This document shows positions 2,466 through 24,020 of a DNA stretch of 64,000 bases, piece after piece. Position 1 is the stretch's first letter. Each line of letters starts with the position of its first letter. The notes under the pieces were generated by a model. That model had not been told where the DNA came from. It saw nothing but the letters and a program-made list of their open reading frames with translations, and searched no databases. Position numbers and translations under genes: made by a program. The DNA comes from Loxodes magnus (taxonomy: Eukaryota; Ciliophora; Karyorelictea; Loxodida; Loxodidae): the NCBI GenBank assembly GCA_946699065.1, contig CAMPDV010000287.1, positions 310,001 to 374,000 of the forward strand, given 5' to 3'.

Positions 2466-5400
2466 TCAGAAGTTTCTAACCTCTTCCAAATCATTCAGCA
2501 CTTGCTCAATTTCTTGGTTAGTTAAGATGTGATTGCACACTACGCAATTAGGCTTTTTAACTAAATTGTTTTTATATCTTAGTATTCTATCCGTGTCTCT
2601 TGAAATTTTACCTCTCAAACATTTCTTGCATATTTAATGCTTGCACTGTAATTGTAAAACAACAATCTGGCTTACAAGTTAATGACATCCTTAGCATTAT
2701 GTTAAAAAATATTATGTCTGATAAAGGTCTTGCATTTCCTTTTTCTTATCCATTATTTTAGTGTAATATACATGATTTTTTATTTGCAAAGGTTTGCTTT
2801 CATTTAATGGGTATTCATTTCCACTTTCAGTTATATAAGTGAAAAATGGCTCACCTGGATTTTAGATAACGTAACCTTGAGGAATTTTAGATTCTCTGAA
2901 AGTTAAAAAACTTCCATCAAAACCATCAGCCTCTGATTATTCTTTTGTATATATTATGTCAAAATGGCCTGGCTTTTATAAGATGTATATTAAAGGACAT
3001 AAACCTGCTACTTTTATTTTTTGAAATGGTATCTTAACCTATTTCACATCTAAAACGACTACTTCGATTTTAATCCTCAAAACAACTTAAAGCAAACCTA
3101 TTTCAATTCCTTAAGGTTCTTTACCCATTGTAAGTATATCTTTGATCAGTTGATTGTAATTAACTGAACTTTATTACTCAAAGTGCTCTTTATGTTGTTC
3201 TAAGTAGTTTGCAGTAAGGCATCGCATTTCCCATACAAGTACTTCATCTTAATTGTCTTTATTTCTAAAGATTTCCTCAGTTAGATATTTCATTATATAG
3301 AGGTTGTTCTTCATCTTCTACTATTCCAGATTTGTTAACAGTTACAAGAACGTTTTCCTCAATACTTCATGACTATCACTCTAATTGTTCGGTCTTACCT
3401 AGTAATACCCAAAGTTTCTATTTATCTTATAAATAAACTCTTATAAATAGCCAATGGGAGTAGTGATTCTTATCAAATGCTCTAAGAATGCAAAGCCAAT
3501 AGCTCGATAGTAGCTATTTCCATCACCTCTAACAGTTCTATAAGAATTATACTTTAGTGAGAGATTTATTATGTTTGCCTTTATATTTTCATTATTCTTG
3601 AAATCCTCACACAAGTGTTCTAGTTTCTTACGAGATGAAATTTACTAAATTTCAGATTCACATTATGACTAATTTTATATACTAAACTCAGCTTAAGTTA
3701 TTTATTAATTAATACTTTAAGAGGTTTAATAAGAACTATTTTAAGAATTTTGGGTTTATATTTGGCCTGATGATTAAAAGTTCCTATTTTGATCATTTCT
3801 TTAAACAAACCATTATTAGTTTTCTTATCTCTCAGATGTTACTTCCTATTAATTTACGCTTGAACTCTCGGTTTACGTCTATTTATATAGTAAAATTTTA
3901 TTTTTTAACTCTAGTTACTTCTTCAAATCAGTTACCTATTAGTTCAACTTTAAATTTTTGTATAATATACTGTCGTTTATAGCCTCTTTTTCCTCTAATG
4001 TTTCCTGTAGTTCTTAATATTTATTTTGCAATTAGAATAATTCTATTTTAATAGTCTCTATTTTATTATTTTTATCTAATAATTAAGCACTTAACTATTT
4101 TTTGACTGCCTGTAGTTCGTTAATCTTGTATTACTCAGATTAAATTAAGCTCTCTTTTCTTTATATTAAAATTTAATTTTCTTAATTTTCTTTCCTCAAA
4201 GATTAGCACTCAATCATTTAGTTTGAATTCCTTTTCTATTCCTCAGAAATTTATATATCACTTTTCTTTAAATTTTCCTACATCTCACTGATCTTGTTTT
4301 CATTAGTTTAAATACTGTCTTATTGCTATTATATTAAAATATTTTATTATTCATTTTGGCTTTTAGTATCTTAAATATCCTTATTCATTTATGCTATTTT
4401 TTCATTTTAGGTGTTATAAGCATCCAGGATCTTTTAAAACCTTAGCTTATTTTTTTCATGCTGTTCTGTTAGTAAACCTATCTTTTTATTTTGATTTTGA
4501 GTCTATTCTTTTAGTAGTCTTATCTTATTATTTTGATCTTGAATAGTAGTTTAATTTTGGCTCTAAATGTTAGTAAGTTCTTTGTTTTTATCTAAAGCTT
4601 ACTTTACTTCTGTTTTTAATTTACTCTCTTCTTGATTCAGTTAATGCAACTATTCATTTAAGCAATTGGATTTCCTTCTACTTTCATCTTTTAGCTGTTG
4701 CATTTAATCATTTAATTTCGTTTATTTCAGTTTTAATTTATTAATTTGAGTTTAATCTTCTTACTTCTTCTTTAAAAGTTCATTTAACCAAATTTTGTAT
4801 TTTTTAAGTTCATCATCTTACTTAATTTTACTGTTTTGATTCTGCTATAAACTACTTTAATCTTATTACTTATTTTATTTTAAAGAATTGACTAGCTGTT
4901 TACATTAAGCTAGTTCTTCTTGAAGATTCTTTCTTTCTTATTCCATGTGCTTTTATTAATCTTATAGCTCTTTTATTTACATCCATTAGCTTTCATTTTT
5001 TTTTAACTATTCATCTAGAATTTTGCATGTCTCTATATAATCCTCTTCATATTAACTAACCTCTTGCTTTTGCATTAGTTCTTATATTCTACTATTATAC
5101 CTTTCAACTAGCATCCTTATTTCTTTTTCTCACTCTTTCTCCTTTTCTTTGTAGTTATAGATCATATAATTGTCTTAATCACCTTCATAATTATCATAGT
5201 CTAAGTTATTTTAAAACACCAAGTTTATTTTATAAAACCGTCCCTCTATCTTATGCTAGTAAGCTTCTATTATTTAAGACTTTTCCTTGCTTTCTCATTA
5301 CTCCATTTCAATCTTTAAGTTTTCTCATTTCTCTTTTAATTTTTAAACCTCTTAAAGCTTTTATTCACTATCCTAGATGGTTTAAAGTCTTTTGTTTTCT

Positions 5401-6047
5401 ACTATTTTAATCTAGTTCTATAAGTCTTTAATCTCTACTATAAAAGTGATTATTTCTTACTGCTACTATAAGATATCTTCAAATACGTTCTAGAGCTCTT
5501 CGCTACAAATCTAGCGAATTTATTTAACGAAGTAGATTAAAATAGTGCTGCTTTACTACCTCAGCTAGCTTTCTTCACTGTTAATCTTACTCTAGAGTAT
5601 CTAGAATTAATTAATTCTTAGTTCACTCTCCATTTATTACTGCATTTCATTAACCTCTTCCTATATTTAGCTTTATATCTGCTTTAATCTCTACTCAATA
5701 GATATGAACTAATGTCCTCTATGTGTTGTGATGGTGCACATTCCACATACTTGTATATTATCATTTACACATATAGAGTTCAAGATCTGCTAGTGATCTT
5801 AGCATTATTAATTTACCAGCTTCAATTTTATTACTGGATCTTAGTGCAAAAACTCATAAGCTATCGGAAGGTTTTCTACACCTATCTTGTTTTTTATATT
5901 ATGAGTAAGGCATTTAAATTCATCCTTCTTCTTACGAAGTATTTTCAAGCATTTTTCACAGAAAACACAAGTACAGTCAAGTCGTTTTGGTAGTCGTTGA
6001 CTGTTATTAAAGGGTTCTTCACATAACTCGCAGAAATGAGATTACAT
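2466..6047 (-). CDS. RING/B-box/coiled-coil protein with otubain-like domain and C-terminal RING (1193 aa)
   Basis: A single frame of 1193 codons runs from ATG at 6047 to TGA at 2466. Residues 6-49 form a RING-type finger (CELC, then CTCVFCEKC, then C46..H49). Residues about 79-115 form a B-box (CQDH..CVND..CGMC..HRGH). A long Gln-rich coiled coil fills the middle. From about residue 835 the text matches otubain (peptidase C65): RGDGNSYYRAIGFAFLEHL, ending with PGHFDIIYT. In otubains the triad is Asp-x2-Cys and a distal His; here Asp842 and His1028 are present but residue 845 is Ser (AGC). Residues about 1118-1171 form a second RING-like finger (CQGC..CKHQICKKC..CVVC). It therefore joins E3-ligase modules to a deubiquitinase fold that is probably inactive and may bind ubiquitin. 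Head and fold assignments are firm; catalytic loss is inferred from one residue. Confidence 0.88.
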
Positions 6048-10096: not shown

Positions 10097-12130
10097 ATGT
10101 CATCTATCCTTTGCTTATTATGTGAAGAGTAATTCAATAGAGATAAAAGACTACCTAGAAGACTTGAGTGTAGCTGTGTTTGCTGCGAGTAATGTTTAAA
10201 GGTATTTATTAAACTAAACAAGTTCTATAAGTGTTAGATTCATATGTAGAGAAGTACTTAACTGATTGAAGATTTAGAAGTAGTTGAAGAGTGTTTAAGA
10301 GATGAAGTAGAAAATGATACTTTGTAAACTTAGCTTTGCTAAAATCATATGGATATATATAAGTTTTATTGCCAAGATGATAATGAAAAAGTATGTGGTA
10401 TTTGCACTATTTCTAACCATGATGGACATAAATTCATATCCCTAGAATAGAAACTTTAAGAAGCTAGAAGTTAAATTGTAATCGAATTGGGTGCTCTAGA
10501 AGATTAGATGAACCTAGAATAAAAAATCAAGGCTTTTAAATCTTTCTAACAAGCTCTAGGAAGAAAAGCCTTAGAACTAAGAGAGTAAACTATACGCTTA
10601 TAAGCTTATTTCTATAGCTAAATACATGAAATAAGCTCATTAGAACTGAAAAGTTAATTAGAAGAGCTCTATAAATTTTAATAAGACATTACTAATAAAA
10701 TAGCTTAGAGCAAAAGCATGATGAAGAAATTAATTACATTGAGGTAGAAGGAAAATAACTCACTTGAAGGTTGCCAATAAATAAGTCAGGAAATTAAGGA
10801 TTTATAGAATGGATACGAGCAAAATAATGCTAATAATGAGAGTGAAAATGGTTTTATAAAATTCTAAGATAGCTCTTTCAGTTAATTTAAAGACATTGTA
10901 ATGAAGCAGCTTATAAAGTAGAATTAGATAGAAGAAACTTGGGCTGAAGACTAAGCAGGGACTATAAATTAAAACTATGAATATTAGATTAATTAGCTTA
11001 ATCAATAGCTAGAAAATGCTAGAACTTAGAATGCAAAGTTAAACGAATAACTGTAAAATTCAAATTAGATAACATAATAACTTTTTTCTACTCTGAGAGA
11101 ATTAGAAAAAGCAAAGACAGACCTGCAATAACAGGTAGAGTAATTAACTGAAATTAATGAAAAGAACAAACTTAAATAATAGTAATGCTTACCTGAAGTT
11201 ATCTCTGAATAAGATATCGAATCGGAGTATTGAACTTACTCGCAAAATAGTTAGGAATAGGTATAGAATTATGTGGAAATGCCATATGATTAATAAACTA
11301 TAAAAAGCAGAAGCTAGCACCAAAAATAGGAATGGACTCATTATATTATATCCTAGTATCATAATAATAATAAGCTGCTTTATAAAATAAGCTCAAAATA
11401 GATATAATTATTTAGCATTCCTATAGAAAAACTTTGACATAATTACACTTTTTCAACTTAAATCAGTAATGATTTATTAGCTCTGGCAGGAGGATATGGA
11501 ACATGAAGACATTAAGAAAATATCTCCCTAGTACATGTAAATTCGGTTTAAAAATTTAACTTGGTATATCCTAAATTATGAACATCACTAGTGCATAATA
11601 ATTAAAATCATATTTATGTGATAAATGGATTTTTACCTTATCAAAGTTATTCTAGCAAGTGTGAGTTACTTAATATATAAAACTATAAGTAGATTTAAGT
11701 ACAAGATCATCCATATAAAATGGGACGTTCTGGAAATGCTTATGCGCATGATTTTCTAGTGACTTTTGGAGGTTTTGGAAGCAATTGCTACGATAGAGTT
11801 TGCTTTTATGATATCAATGACAATAAATGATTCCAATTCTGAAATAGTATGCCAGTTCAAGCAGCTTATTGCTCAGCAATTTTCGCTCCTGATATCGAGC
11901 TAATTTTCCTTTTTGACAATTACGACAGACTAAAAAATACTAACGTCTTTGACTACCAACAATTTTATATTCACGGAAAAAACTTTCCAATATATGACCA
12001 ATCTACTTTTCGCTCTTTCTGCTTCAATGGTATTTATTAAAAGTAGAATTTATATATGTTCTAGACCGATGGATAGGAATTATATACCTATAATATACAA
12101 TTAGAAAGCTGGAGAAAGGTTAGTTTATGA
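10097..12130 (+). CDS. RING/B-box/coiled-coil/kelch protein (677 aa)
   Basis: ATG at 10097 and TGA at 12128-12130 lie in one frame of 678 codons. The N-terminus carries a RING-type finger (C6LLC9, then CSCVCCEQC) very like that of the 2466-6047 gene. A B-box follows (CQNH..YCQD..CGIC..HDGH), then a Gln-rich coiled coil. The last third is a kelch propeller: GGYGTWRHQ, FGGFGSNCYDRV, DINDNKWFQFWNSMP and ESWRKVSL are typical blade pieces. Several blade Trp residues (GTW, NKW, QFW) are TGA codons, while the terminal ESW uses TGG, so TGA=Trp and TGA=stop occur in the same gene. The architecture is that of a substrate-binding E3 ubiquitin ligase. It starts a row of three RING-family genes on this strand. 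Confidence 0.87.
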
Positions 12131-13385: not shown

Positions 13386-15539
13386 ATGTCTTCTAACTTC
13401 TGTGGATTATGTGATCAAACGTATGATCTTAACATATGTCGTCCTAGAAGACTTAAGTGCAGTTGTGTGTGATGTGAAAAATGCTTGAAGATATAAGGTA
13501 AAGTGAAAAAATACTTCAAATGCTAGATACATAAGTTTAAGGATTATAGTAAGATAGAAGAGCTAGAAATACCTAATTTACCTTTACTAGAAAACTAGGT
13601 TATTAAACAGACGCAGAATTAGATAAGTTAAAAACTCGATTAAGTGTAGTAACAAATATAAGTTGGATAAAGAGTAAAAGAACTAGAAAACATATAAAGC
13701 TAAGTAAGTTTAAAAGAAGGTAAATTAGGGAATCTAGCAAGCAATAAACCCTTAGAAAGCACTGATTAGATATAAGATAGATAACTAGATCGACCTTAGG
13801 ATGAAAATCAAGACTTACTTCTTGACCAAAAATCCGTTAACTTATAGAGATAAAAAGAAGAATATGAAAGATAATAAGAAACTTAGCTTAAATAGTTAAA
13901 TGAAAGGATTAAATTTTTATAGCAGTAATAAGAGGAAAGCTAGACTTTAATCAAAAGCTTATAAAAGGATCTTGAGGCATCACGTAAAAATGCTGAACTT
14001 CTTAGTTCTGAGATTTAAGGATATCAATTGGAAAGCTAAGAAATGAATGATTATTTAAACTAAAAGGAGGCAAAGATTTAGAACTAAAGAAAACAGATAA
14101 CTGTTTTTCAAAACTAATAAAAATACTGAAAAAAAGAGGAAGCAAATCATAATAAAGAATTAACAAATTCCAGAAAATTAGTAAATAGTAAAGAGGCTAA
14201 AGTTAAAAATCTCTAAAGCAATATTTAGCTAAAGGATAAATAAATAGAAGCGAAAGATATATTGAATTAAGATTAATAGAGTCAAATTAAGGAGTTAATA
14301 AAGAAAGAAGAAGAAAGTAAAGTTCAAATTTAACAGCTCAGAGCAACAATAGAGAAATAACTATAGACCGAAAGCGATAAAGATATTAGAGAAAAAGAAT
14401 TTAAAGTACCTAAATAATAACTTCAAGATATTAAAAATGAGAAAGAAGGGATAATTTTAAATTACTAGGAACAAGTTAAAGAGCTGAATAAATAGATAGA
14501 CGAAAATAAAAAGCAGATCTAAAGCTTAAATGATAAGTTGTAGAATGATAAACTGACAATAGAATAACTTAGTACTGAATAAAAAGTTCTGTGTAGTAAT
14601 CAAATGACAGCAAGAAATTCAGCTTAAGATGAAAACACGATTTTAAAATTAAATAAATAGATAAGCGATCTAACCAAACAATAAGATAGCCTTAAACTCT
14701 AACACTAAATACTTAAAGAAGAACTTTAAATATGCAAATAAAAAAACATAAATCTAACCAATGCTAGTGGTAAGTTGATTAATGTAAATGATAATAGAGA
14801 CTGGGAACTAAAGCAAAAATAAGACTTAATTCTAAACTAAATAAATGAAATAAAAAGCCTAAAGGAATCTTAAGACTAATTAGCTAATCGTAATATAATC
14901 TTAGAAAGCTAAAACTAGTAAATAAGTTAATAAAATATTTTTATGTCTAACAGACTATTATAGATTGAAGAGTTATTTTCAGAAAAATAAAGTTAGCTAG
15001 AAGAGAAAGAATAACTAGTTCAGAATCAGTAAAAGTAATTAACTAAAATGTAAAAACAGCAAGAATAGATTTAAACTGATTGCCTGGTAAAAAATGAAGA
15101 TGAAGGTACAAATAAAAATAGCAATGATAACTAAATTTAAATCTAAAAGTAGTAATAGATATAAGATTTTCAAACTTATTAGCAATAACTACAACATAAA
15201 ATTGACTCTCTGAATAAACAATTTTAAAGGACTAAGAAGAAAAGTAAGTCATAGGTAGATAAAAGGGACTTATATTGACTAAAGCGAAAAGAAAATATAC
15301 TAGAAACATAAATAAAAATTGAGAAATAAAATAGCGAGATCTCTAAATAACAATTTGGCTATATTTGTGTAGTTATTACAGTTATTATTCTGCTGAATCT
15401 AGTAAAATGTATTTAGGAGATCTTCTCCTAGAAGTCTTAACTTTTAAAATTAAAAATTTTTCTTAATCAAATATGTAAAATAAAGTAGCTATTTAAATAG
15501 TTAAGGATGACATCTCTCTAAGTTTATTAATTAAAATGA
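13386..15539 (+). CDS. RING-like finger, long coiled coil and C-terminal membrane anchor (717 aa)
   Basis: ATG at 13386 and TGA at 15537-15539 enclose 718 codons in one frame. The N-terminus is a RING-like finger related to the neighbouring genes (CGLCDQTYDL, CSCVWCEKCLK, FKCQIHK). Within CVWCEKC the Trp is TGA; paralogs have C or F there. No B-box is present. Residues about 70-650 are almost pure Lys/Glu/Gln/Asn coiled coil, in which Gln is nearly always TAA or TAG. Near the C-terminus a single hydrophobic run (FGYICVVITVIILLNLVK) is a likely membrane anchor, followed by a short basic tail. The product may tether a ligase-type finger to a membrane on a long rod. It could instead be structural; nothing shows catalytic competence of the finger. 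Confidence 0.82.
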
Positions 15540-22787: not shown

Positions 22788-24020
22788 TCAAAATTATTTA
22801 AAAGATAAATTTTTAATTATTTTTTGTTATTTAAAGTTAAATTTATTTTAGCTTTTAATAGTAAGATTTTTTTAATTGTTTATTTAATTCGAAGTTATAA
22901 TAAATTAATATTTTTAAATTATCTAAGTTAAATTTCTTCCTTGCTAATTTTATCTTTCTTGCAAATCTTAATCAAAGTTAATAATCTCTACTCTTCCAAA
23001 TCTATTAGTAAACTTAACCTTACCAGTAAAGTTTTAACCCTATCAAAATCCTTCTCATTTCTCCCCATTCTCATCATAAAATTTTCCTTTTCCTTGTTTT
23101 AAATTATTCCAAAACTCTCCCGCATATATTTTTTTATTGCCTTTATATAAAGAACCTTCACCTTATATTAAATTCTGCACAAAGTTTCCTTTATATTAAT
23201 CTCCATTTTTATATTTTAAAACACCATACCCATGTTTTTTATTTTGATAAAAATCTCCTTCATAAACATTTCCATCTACAAATTTGAATTTTCCATTTCC
23301 TTATTTTTAGCCTTCTATTCATTATCCTTTATATTATTCTCCATTTTTATAATTCATTTTTCCATTTCCATGCACTTTATCTTGCAAAAACCCTCCTTCA
23401 TATATATCTCCGTTTGTGAAATTAAATTTTCCTTTACCAAACTTTAATCCTCACATCCATCTTCCTTCATATTTGCTTCCATCTTTATATCAATAAGTTC
23501 CTTATCCATGAAATTTATCTGTAAAAAACTCTCCTTCATATTTTTCTCCGTTTATATAAATGAAAACTCCTTTTCCTTACATTTTATCCTTTGCATATTC
23601 TCCAAAATATTTATCTCCATTAGCATAAGTAAAATTTCCCTTTCCTTGCATATAATCATTAAAATATTCACCTTCATATTTATCTCCATTTTAATAAATA
23701 AAAGTTCCATTTCCATGCTTTTTATTTTTCCAAAAATCTCCTATAAAATAATCTCCATTTGCTTATCATAAAGTTCCATATCCTTATTTCTAACCCTCAG
23801 TAAAATTTCCCTAATACTTATCTCCATTTTATATAAATACACCATAACCTTAATAAATAATTTCTTCTTCTTTCAAACTCTCCCCCGATTATATTTTTAT
23901 TTATAAAAATCTATCAAATTTATTTGGCTATTTTTAAGGTATCACAAAAGACCAGACAAGTATAATTAGCAGGAACAATACTAGAGATATTATAACTATA
24001 TTTCTCAACCTGCTTTACAT
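22788..24020 (-). CDS. Membrane-anchored MORN-repeat protein (410 aa)
   Basis: ATG at 24020 and the first non-repeat TGA at 22788 lie in one frame of 411 codons. The N-terminus is a signal anchor (RNIVIISLVLFLLIILVW). From about residue 60 there are some eleven MORN repeats of 23 residues, for example NGDKYEGEYFNDYMQGKGNF and NGDIYEGGFLQDKVHGNGK. MORN units bind lipid or act as membrane-associated scaffolds. Several repeat Trp positions are TGA (GQWIEGQKQG, EGFWQGQ), while others are TGG (GDFWKNK, EGRW). The last about 55 codons after the repeats are Asn/Gln-rich low complexity, so the true end could lie earlier if TAA or TAG can stop near a 3' end. Repeat assignment is certain; the end is less so. 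Confidence 0.88.

What the first reader, a model, noticed from the sequence alone, without database searches (positions are those of the whole stretch)
2466..6047. Fusion of RING/B-box ligase modules with an otubain fold whose catalytic Cys is Ser
One 1193-codon frame joins RING, B-box, coiled coil, an otubain-like domain (RGDGNSYYRA ... PGHFDIIY) and a second RING. Asp842 and His1028 of the triad are kept and residue 845 is Ser. Ligase and deubiquitinase folds in one chain are unusual, and a Cys-to-Ser otubain suggests a ubiquitin-binding pseudoenzyme inside an E3.
Basis: partly seen in the sequence, partly recalled or inferred. Interest (0 to 1): 0.82.

Follow-up and report, generated by a model that had tools for sequence, protein, structure and literature searches.

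The report
Dead otubain inside a TRIM-like ligase
A ciliate gene joins a ubiquitin-ligase-like front half to a ubiquitin-cutting domain whose cutting residue has been replaced, and it belongs to a very large gene family in which that loss has happened repeatedly.

Summary
The frame is real, on the minus strand (2466-6047, 1193 aa, code 27). It encodes a TRIM-like RING and B-box, a long Gln-rich coil-like stretch, an otubain domain (Pfam C65, E 1e-25) with Ser845 in place of the catalytic Cys, and a C-terminal RING. It holds 342 otubain active-site motifs: 239 Cys, 103 non-Cys (80 Ser). Of 81 sampled otubain domains, 52 are followed by a recognisable RING, and a RING precedes the otubain in 10 other loci, so the fusion is a family layout, not a one-off. 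Parsimony needs 14-16 Cys/non-Cys changes among the 81. A neighbouring paralog shares Ser845, but its otubain is a gene-conversion copy. The Ser845 lineage rejects neutral evolution (omega 0.115, p 1e-6). A pseudoenzyme is supported. Ubiquitin binding is not shown, and changes at family-conserved positions (R1001V, Y1024Q) speak against the canonical mode. Cys-to-Ser OTU pseudoenzymes are known (Drosophila Otu, CG3251); new are the TRIM-otubain layout and the scale. Structure prediction was uninformative; no other ciliate could be searched.

The parts
2466..6047 (-). whole coding frame, 1193 aa + TGA stop, genetic code 27 (TAA/TAG = Gln, internal TGA = Trp)
5901..6032 (-). N-terminal TRIM-like RING, residues 6-49 (ligands C6 C9 C25 C27 C30 C33 C46 H49)
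   Evidence: Pfam zf-RING_UBOX E 1.8e-5, 0.1 bit under cut-off; profile A2 matches TRIM72 over RING and B-box; residues
5712..5804 (-). B-box zinc finger, residues 82-112
   Evidence: Pfam zf-B_box E 3.2e-7, over cut-off
3723..5696 (-). long Gln/Glu/Lys-rich coiled-coil-like stretch, about residues 118-775 (coiled coil inferred by eye; no predictor run)
   Evidence: sequence; aligned with gaps to the paralog
2949..3650 (-). otubain (Peptidase C65) domain, about residues 800-1033
   Evidence: Pfam E 1.1e-25; OTUB1 chain 4ddg E 2.3e-15
3513..3515 (-). codon AGC, Ser845, at the catalytic Cys position (OTUB1 Cys91)
3522..3524 (-). Asp842, equivalent of OTUB1 Asp88
2964..2966 (-). His1028, triad His (OTUB1 His265)
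2958..2960 (-). Asp1030, triad Asp (OTUB1 Asp267)
2910..3554 (-). gene-conversion tract, residues 832-1046, shared with the paralog at C287:301749-302891(-)
   Evidence: 10 differing codons of 215; 60-nt blocks 97-100% identical inside (83% in the last block), 47-77% in blocks outside
2535..2696 (-). C-terminal RING, residues 1118-1171, most like RING1 of RBR ligases

Best explanation
The gene encodes a TRIM-like (RING, B-box, coiled-coil) ubiquitin ligase whose C-terminal half is an otubain that has lost deubiquitinase chemistry, followed by a RING related to RING1 of RBR ligases. Shown: the single frame, the domains, Cys-to-Ser at 845 with His1028 and Asp1030 kept, its origin within a clade of Cys-bearing paralogs, and low omega on its lineage. 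Inferred: the RINGs recruit E2 enzymes and ligate; the otubain does not cut but is kept as a docking domain in the place where animal TRIM proteins carry their target-recognition domain. The most likely ligand class is ubiquitin, an E2-ubiquitin conjugate or a ubiquitinated target, as for OTUB1, whose Cys91-to-Ser form still inhibits ubiquitination without cutting. A new, non-ubiquitin ligand is the main alternative.
For: Domains. One gene: the paralog 10.8 kb away has RING, coil, otubain(Ser) and RING in one frame, with shared TGA-Trp codons. Ser lies within a Cys clade: nearest relatives L011-L014 have Cys. Constraint: omega 0.115 on the Ser lineage against 0.071 background; omega = 1 rejected, p 1.3e-6; not higher than background (LRT 1.3). 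Five sister pairs in which both members lack Cys have omega 0.06-0.50, all rejecting 1. 80 of 103 non-Cys motifs are Ser, in both unconnected codon sets (51 AGY, 29 TCN), though Ser is only 2 of the 8 single-base changes of TGC/TGT. OTUB1 Asp88, needed for its non-catalytic E2 binding in most settings, has its equivalent Asp842.
Against: No activity, binding, expression or structure evidence. The lineage tested includes time before the Cys was lost. The post-conversion comparison (7 nonsynonymous, 3 synonymous) cannot tell constraint from neutrality, nor can the whole-domain pair L009/L010 (omega 0.69, p 0.33). R1001V, Y1024Q, F959Q, A978P and P985L change residues that at least 92% of the 51 Cys/His members share; R1001 is changed in 26 of 28 non-Cys and 4 of 53 Cys members, which may mean that canonical ubiquitin contacts are gone. 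RING1 has Cys where RING-HC has His, and ligase activity is untested. Drosophila CG3251 did not bind ubiquitin chains detectably.
Confidence: 0.6

Rival explanations
1. Pseudoenzyme with a new job: the dead otubain fold no longer binds ubiquitin but recognises other proteins, and the family diversifies as a target-recognition repertoire.
For: Besides Cys, non-Cys members lose family-conserved residues of the active-site region: G841 in 23 of 28, R1001 in 26 of 28, P1026 in 23 of 28, against 0, 4 and 2 of 53 Cys members. Huge family with swapped N-terminal modules. CG3251 precedent.
Against: P0001 itself keeps G841, P1026, G1027, H1028 and D1030. On well supported branches only 7 independent pairs exist and the sign tests do not reach 0.05 (median p 0.06-0.25). 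No partner is known.
Confidence: 0.25
2. Decay: the otubain is a recently disabled domain drifting towards loss and has no function of its own.
For: Cys is lost often (103 of 342 motifs). 7 of 28 non-Cys branches have omega significantly above background, and 6 of 28 do not reject omega = 1. Close dead pairs have omega 0.46-1.06, not separable from 1.
Against: 22 of 28 non-Cys branches reject omega = 1, against 9 of 12 Cys/His control branches; several fits sit at the branch-length bound. Diverged dead sister pairs are constrained. The frame of this gene is intact and the tract was recently copied.
Confidence: 0.11
3. Ser845 is a working nucleophile (a serine deubiquitinase).
For: Ser is by far the commonest replacement (80 of 103), and 13 of 22 Ser-bearing domains in the alignment, this one included, keep His.
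Against: The two Drosophila OTU proteins with Ser were inactive (PMC4654579 abstract and Discussion). Non-Cys members also lose R1001, Y1024 and often His or Asp. Serine deubiquitinases had not been described according to that abstract (2015).
Confidence: 0.02
4. Artefact: a sequencing error at 845, or two adjacent genes read as one.
For: The code lets almost any AT-rich frame stay open, and no transcript was available.
Against: Ser in a paralog at another place of the contig; the same domain order in that paralog and in Cys members L013 and L050 within one frame; shared internal TGA-Trp codons.
Confidence: 0.02

Closest known systems
OTUB1 (otubain 1, Peptidase C65)
   Same: Homologous domain (E 2.3e-15); His and Asp of the triad; Asp88 equivalent. 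The solved chains 4ddg and 4i6l themselves read DGNS at this site.
   Different: OTUB1 has Cys91 and is a stand-alone enzyme; here Ser, in a chain with two RINGs and a B-box.
Drosophila Otu and CG3251 (OTUD4 family), PMC4654579
   Same: Natural, repeated Cys-to-Ser change in OTU domains; inactive.
   Different: Other OTU subfamily; no RING or B-box reported in the sections seen; small gene numbers.
TRIM / RBCC ligases (e.g. TRIM72)
   Same: RING, B-box and coil in this order; profile match to TRIM72 over RING and B-box (E 3.8e-5).
   Different: C-terminal domain is an otubain plus a second RING; no TRIM with an OTU domain is known to me (recalled; two searches found none).
ARIH1 and other RBR ligases
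   Same: The C-terminal RING of the family matches ARIH1 RING1 best (E 1.8e-4; L084 alone 5.1e-4).
   Different: No IBR or catalytic RING2 in this protein; the frame ends 22 residues after the last ligand Cys.
A20 / TNFAIP3 (recalled, no call)
   Same: OTU domain and ligase activity in one chain.
   Different: A20 has an active Cys and A20-type zinc fingers, not RING and B-box.

Membership tests
Otubain (Peptidase C65, PF10275) | Profile match over the curated cut-off | tested here: met
   91 bits against 24.3
Otubain (Peptidase C65, PF10275) | Catalytic Cys in DGNC | tested here: not met
   Ser845; hence filed as a pseudoenzyme homolog, not as a deubiquitinase
Otubain (Peptidase C65, PF10275) | Triad His and Asp | tested here: met
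   His1028 and Asp1030
Otubain (Peptidase C65, PF10275) | Otubain three-dimensional fold | tested here: inconclusive
   Single-sequence AlphaFold2 model, mean pLDDT 42, pTM 0.37; the fold is inferred from sequence homology
Otubain (Peptidase C65, PF10275) | Ubiquitin cleavage or binding | not testable with these tools
   needs purified protein
TRIM / RBCC ligase | N-terminal RING | tested here: met
   Pfam E 1.8e-5 but 0.1 bit under cut-off; profile with B-box matches TRIM72
TRIM / RBCC ligase | B-box after the RING | tested here: met
   Pfam 30.8 bits against 24.1
TRIM / RBCC ligase | Coiled coil after the B-box | not tested
   sequence looks so; no predictor run; Gln-rich, so a predictor could mislead
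TRIM / RBCC ligase | Ligase activity | not testable with these tools
   needs an in vitro assay
RBR ligase | RING1-type domain | tested here: inconclusive
   best PDB hit is ARIH1 RING1, E 1.8e-4, but other RINGs follow closely
RBR ligase | IBR and RING2 with catalytic Cys | tested here: not met
   the frame ends at residue 1193 soon after the RING; Pfam shows no IBR at E 0.1
Drosophila-type OTU pseudoenzyme | Cys replaced by Ser with His and Asp kept | tested here: met

The most novel reading that the evidence does not exclude
The genome holds a repertoire of hundreds of RING/TRIM-otubain proteins in which catalytically dead otubains were repeatedly made from active ones, homogenised by gene conversion and re-joined to different RING modules. 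The otubain fold would then serve as an interchangeable recognition or E2-ubiquitin-sensing domain of a ligase arsenal, comparable in scale to immune-type ligase repertoires elsewhere.
Probability: 0.2. Interest if true: 0.85.

Novelty: new variant of a known kind. Interest (0 to 1): 0.62.

Why it matters
Ligase and deubiquitinase folds in one chain, present in active and dead versions many times over in one genome, make a natural experiment on what a deubiquitinase fold does once it stops cutting. Nature made, repeatedly, the Cys-to-Ser change that laboratories use to trap OTUB1. If the dead copies bind E2-ubiquitin, the family tests directly whether the non-catalytic role of otubains can evolve on its own. 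If they bind something else, it is an unrecognised recognition fold in ligases. The expansion itself is not mentioned in the main text of the L. magnus genome paper by the words otubain, RING, TRIM or ubiquitin.

Tried and rejected
Structure prediction of the otubain domain alone: mean pLDDT 42, uninformative, so no fold search was run. A paralog alignment was not handed to the predictor, because its stated rule does not list loci from the genome search.

Search for relatives in viral contigs: 7 stretches matched a pattern, none confirmed. Genome contigs (prokaryotes) was not scanned. No other ciliate genome could be searched.

Considered and dropped: Ser as nucleophile; two genes read as one; sequencing error (see rivals). 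'The shared Ser of the nearest paralog shows long conservation' was dropped after finding the conversion tract. RBR origin of the C-terminal RING is kept only as a lead: no IBR found, and the tail of L041 gave no significant hit (best E 0.13).

Alignment A3 had several rows out of frame through my coordinates and was not used. One search printed too much and was repeated in short form. The TAL-effector hit has no matched stretch and was ignored.

Literature searches for the layout or the expansion; no listed paper described either, judged from titles and starts of abstracts only. Papers seen: PMC11441545 (abstract, sections 8 and 9, passages); PMC4654579 (abstract, sections 5 and 9); PMC10803509 (passages); the others only as search listings.

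Full report
WHAT WAS CHECKED. The window is C287:310001-374000 of a 705.7 Mb, 7843-contig assembly. The size equals the 706 Mbp macronuclear assembly of Loxodes magnus (PMC11441545 section 8), and the code fits table 27; the species is therefore an inference. The frame lies on the minus strand, 6047 to 2466, 1193 aa. Because only TGA stops, and TGA may also be Trp, open frames are cheap here: a 794-codon frame is open on the other strand of the same gene. So I relied on homology, on a paralog and on the end of the gene (TGA-TGA, no reassigned stop codons in the last 55 codons, AT-rich downstream).

DOMAINS. Pfam: RING (just under cut-off), B-box, otubain. PDB sequences: OTUB1 and OTUB2 for the otubain, TRIM72 for RING and B-box with a seven-row profile, ARIH1 RING1 for the C-terminal RING with a 27-row profile. 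Row choice for the last profile used a RING regular expression, so the invariance of its ligand columns is by construction. Single-sequence structure prediction failed to give a usable model.

ACTIVE SITE. Ser845 replaces Cys91 of OTUB1; His1028 matches His265; Asp1030 matches Asp267, the triad Asp according to the OTUB1 review (passages).

FAMILY SIZE. The otubain profile had 474 first-look candidates, of which 150 were scored, all over the cut-off. The motif DGN-x-[aromatic or similar]2-R-A (pattern GAYGGNAAYNNNTWYTWYMGNGCN) occurs 342 times, 0 in the reversed control. The odd codon is TGY in 239, begins with A, C or G in 65, is T followed by A, C or T in 37, leaving 1 TGG (listed). From the listed letters I counted 80 Ser (51 AGY, 29 TCN), 10 Asn, 6 Gln, 2 Thr and one each of Asp, Gly, Phe, Tyr, Trp. 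The assembly was not phased, so some copies may be haplotypes, and the pattern misses motifs that deviate elsewhere.

LAYOUT. A C-terminal RING by regular expression follows the otubain in 52 of 81 extracted domains; some misses show partial or differently spaced RINGs, and L088-L090 were fetched short. Upstream RINGs were seen in 10 other loci: in the otubain's frame in L004, L041, L050, L051, L055, L061, L069/L010 and L013, in another frame in L043 and L072/L011, where a short intron could join them (inference; L. magnus introns average 19 bp). Most fetched flanks were only about 1.5 kb, too short to see an N-terminus as far away as in this gene. L050, with Cys, also has a B-box. RING/B-box relatives of the N-terminus are numerous (1749 first-look candidates, 150 scored), and in the two best ones fetched, L070 and L071, no otubain lies within the 6-7 kb fetched. 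So modules have been shuffled.

THE NEAREST PARALOG. At C287:301749-302891(-) and upstream lies a second RING, coil, otubain(Ser), RING gene without a B-box. Over the whole length dN is 0.42 and dS 1.13, but residues 832-1046 differ in only 10 of 215 codons (dS 0.023, dN 0.014) with about 50% DNA identity just upstream and 47-77% downstream. This is gene conversion, so the shared Ser is not independent evidence of long conservation. It does rule out an isolated base error.

HOW OFTEN CYS WAS LOST. On a tree of 81 domains (53 Cys, 28 non-Cys; sampled by best score, by pattern order and by choice of non-Cys sites, hence enriched for non-Cys) the fewest Cys/non-Cys changes are 14, or 16 with more columns left out. 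The tree is a quick one with long branches, and 27 of 75 inner branches are open. Direction is inferred from active otubains elsewhere. This gene and its paralog sit beside Cys-bearing L011-L014 (support 92). AGY and TCN Ser codons cannot interconvert in one step, which also points to separate origins.

SELECTION. Three-sequence codon models: on this gene's branch omega is 0.115, background 0.071, omega = 1 rejected with p 1.3e-6. Of 28 non-Cys branches 22 reject omega = 1 and 7 are significantly above background; of 12 Cys/His control branches 9 reject omega = 1; L012 (Cys, His lost) does not (p 0.075). Branches include time before the loss, and several are saturated. Sister pairs without Cys in either member: omega 0.163, 0.056, 0.128, 0.068 and 0.497, each rejecting 1; the close pairs L009/L010, L060-L063 (four comparisons) and L080/L083 do not.

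LINKED CHANGES. Against Cys members, non-Cys members have lost R1001 (26 of 28 against 4 of 53), G841 (23 of 28 against 0 of 53), P1026 (23 of 28 against 2 of 53), Y1024 (21 of 27 against 4 of 53) and His (14 of 28 against 2 of 53), but not core residues such as E856 (0 of 28) or W939 (0 of 28). With only 7 well supported independent pairs the sign tests stay above 0.05 at the median. This protein keeps G841, P1026, H1028 and D1030 but has R1001V and Y1024Q. In Drosophila CG3251 a His-loop aromatic that contacts the distal ubiquitin tail is replaced too; whether Y1024 is that position is not settled.

MECHANISM. I commit to a TRIM-like ligase with a non-cutting otubain used as a docking domain (0.6). 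The ligand is most likely ubiquitin or E2-ubiquitin, as in non-catalytic OTUB1 (abstract start of PMC6254341; passages), but this last step is the weakest; I put it near 0.35, and the new-ligand rival at 0.25.

NOVELTY. Cys-to-Ser OTU pseudoenzymes are known, and an OTU with ligase activity in one chain is known (A20, recalled). I found no report of TRIM-otubain proteins or of such an expansion in seven literature searches, judged from listings. Hence: new variant of a known kind.

Noticed in passing
window 10112 (+), 13401 (+), 15636 (+), 28332 (+): Further TRIM-like RING motifs; the one at 10112 has a B-box (Pfam E 4.3e-9), the one at 13401 is close in the RING but lacks the B-box.
   Followed up: partly
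window 38707 (-) and 62629 (-): Two nearly identical RING frames about 24 kb apart, probably a recent duplicate pair.
   Followed up: no
window 23187-23839: Tandem repeat of 69/138 bp period at 71-73% match, in a stretch with strong GC skew; may encode a repeat protein on the minus strand.
   Followed up: no
G000, 13 places on 9 contigs (C264, C335, C494, C524, C602, C1423, C1728, C2829, C3008): One identical 23-base Ser-type motif, suggesting recent multiplication of a dead otubain copy; not fetched.
   Followed up: no
L012 (C130:286823-288007): A near-identical twin of Cys member L011 keeps Cys but has lost the triad His (Tyr) and Asp (Gly): another route to a dead otubain.
   Followed up: partly
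L041 and L084: Divergent members continue after the RING with further Cys pairs resembling an IBR; Pfam gives no IBR. A possible trace of an otubain-RBR ancestor.
   Followed up: partly
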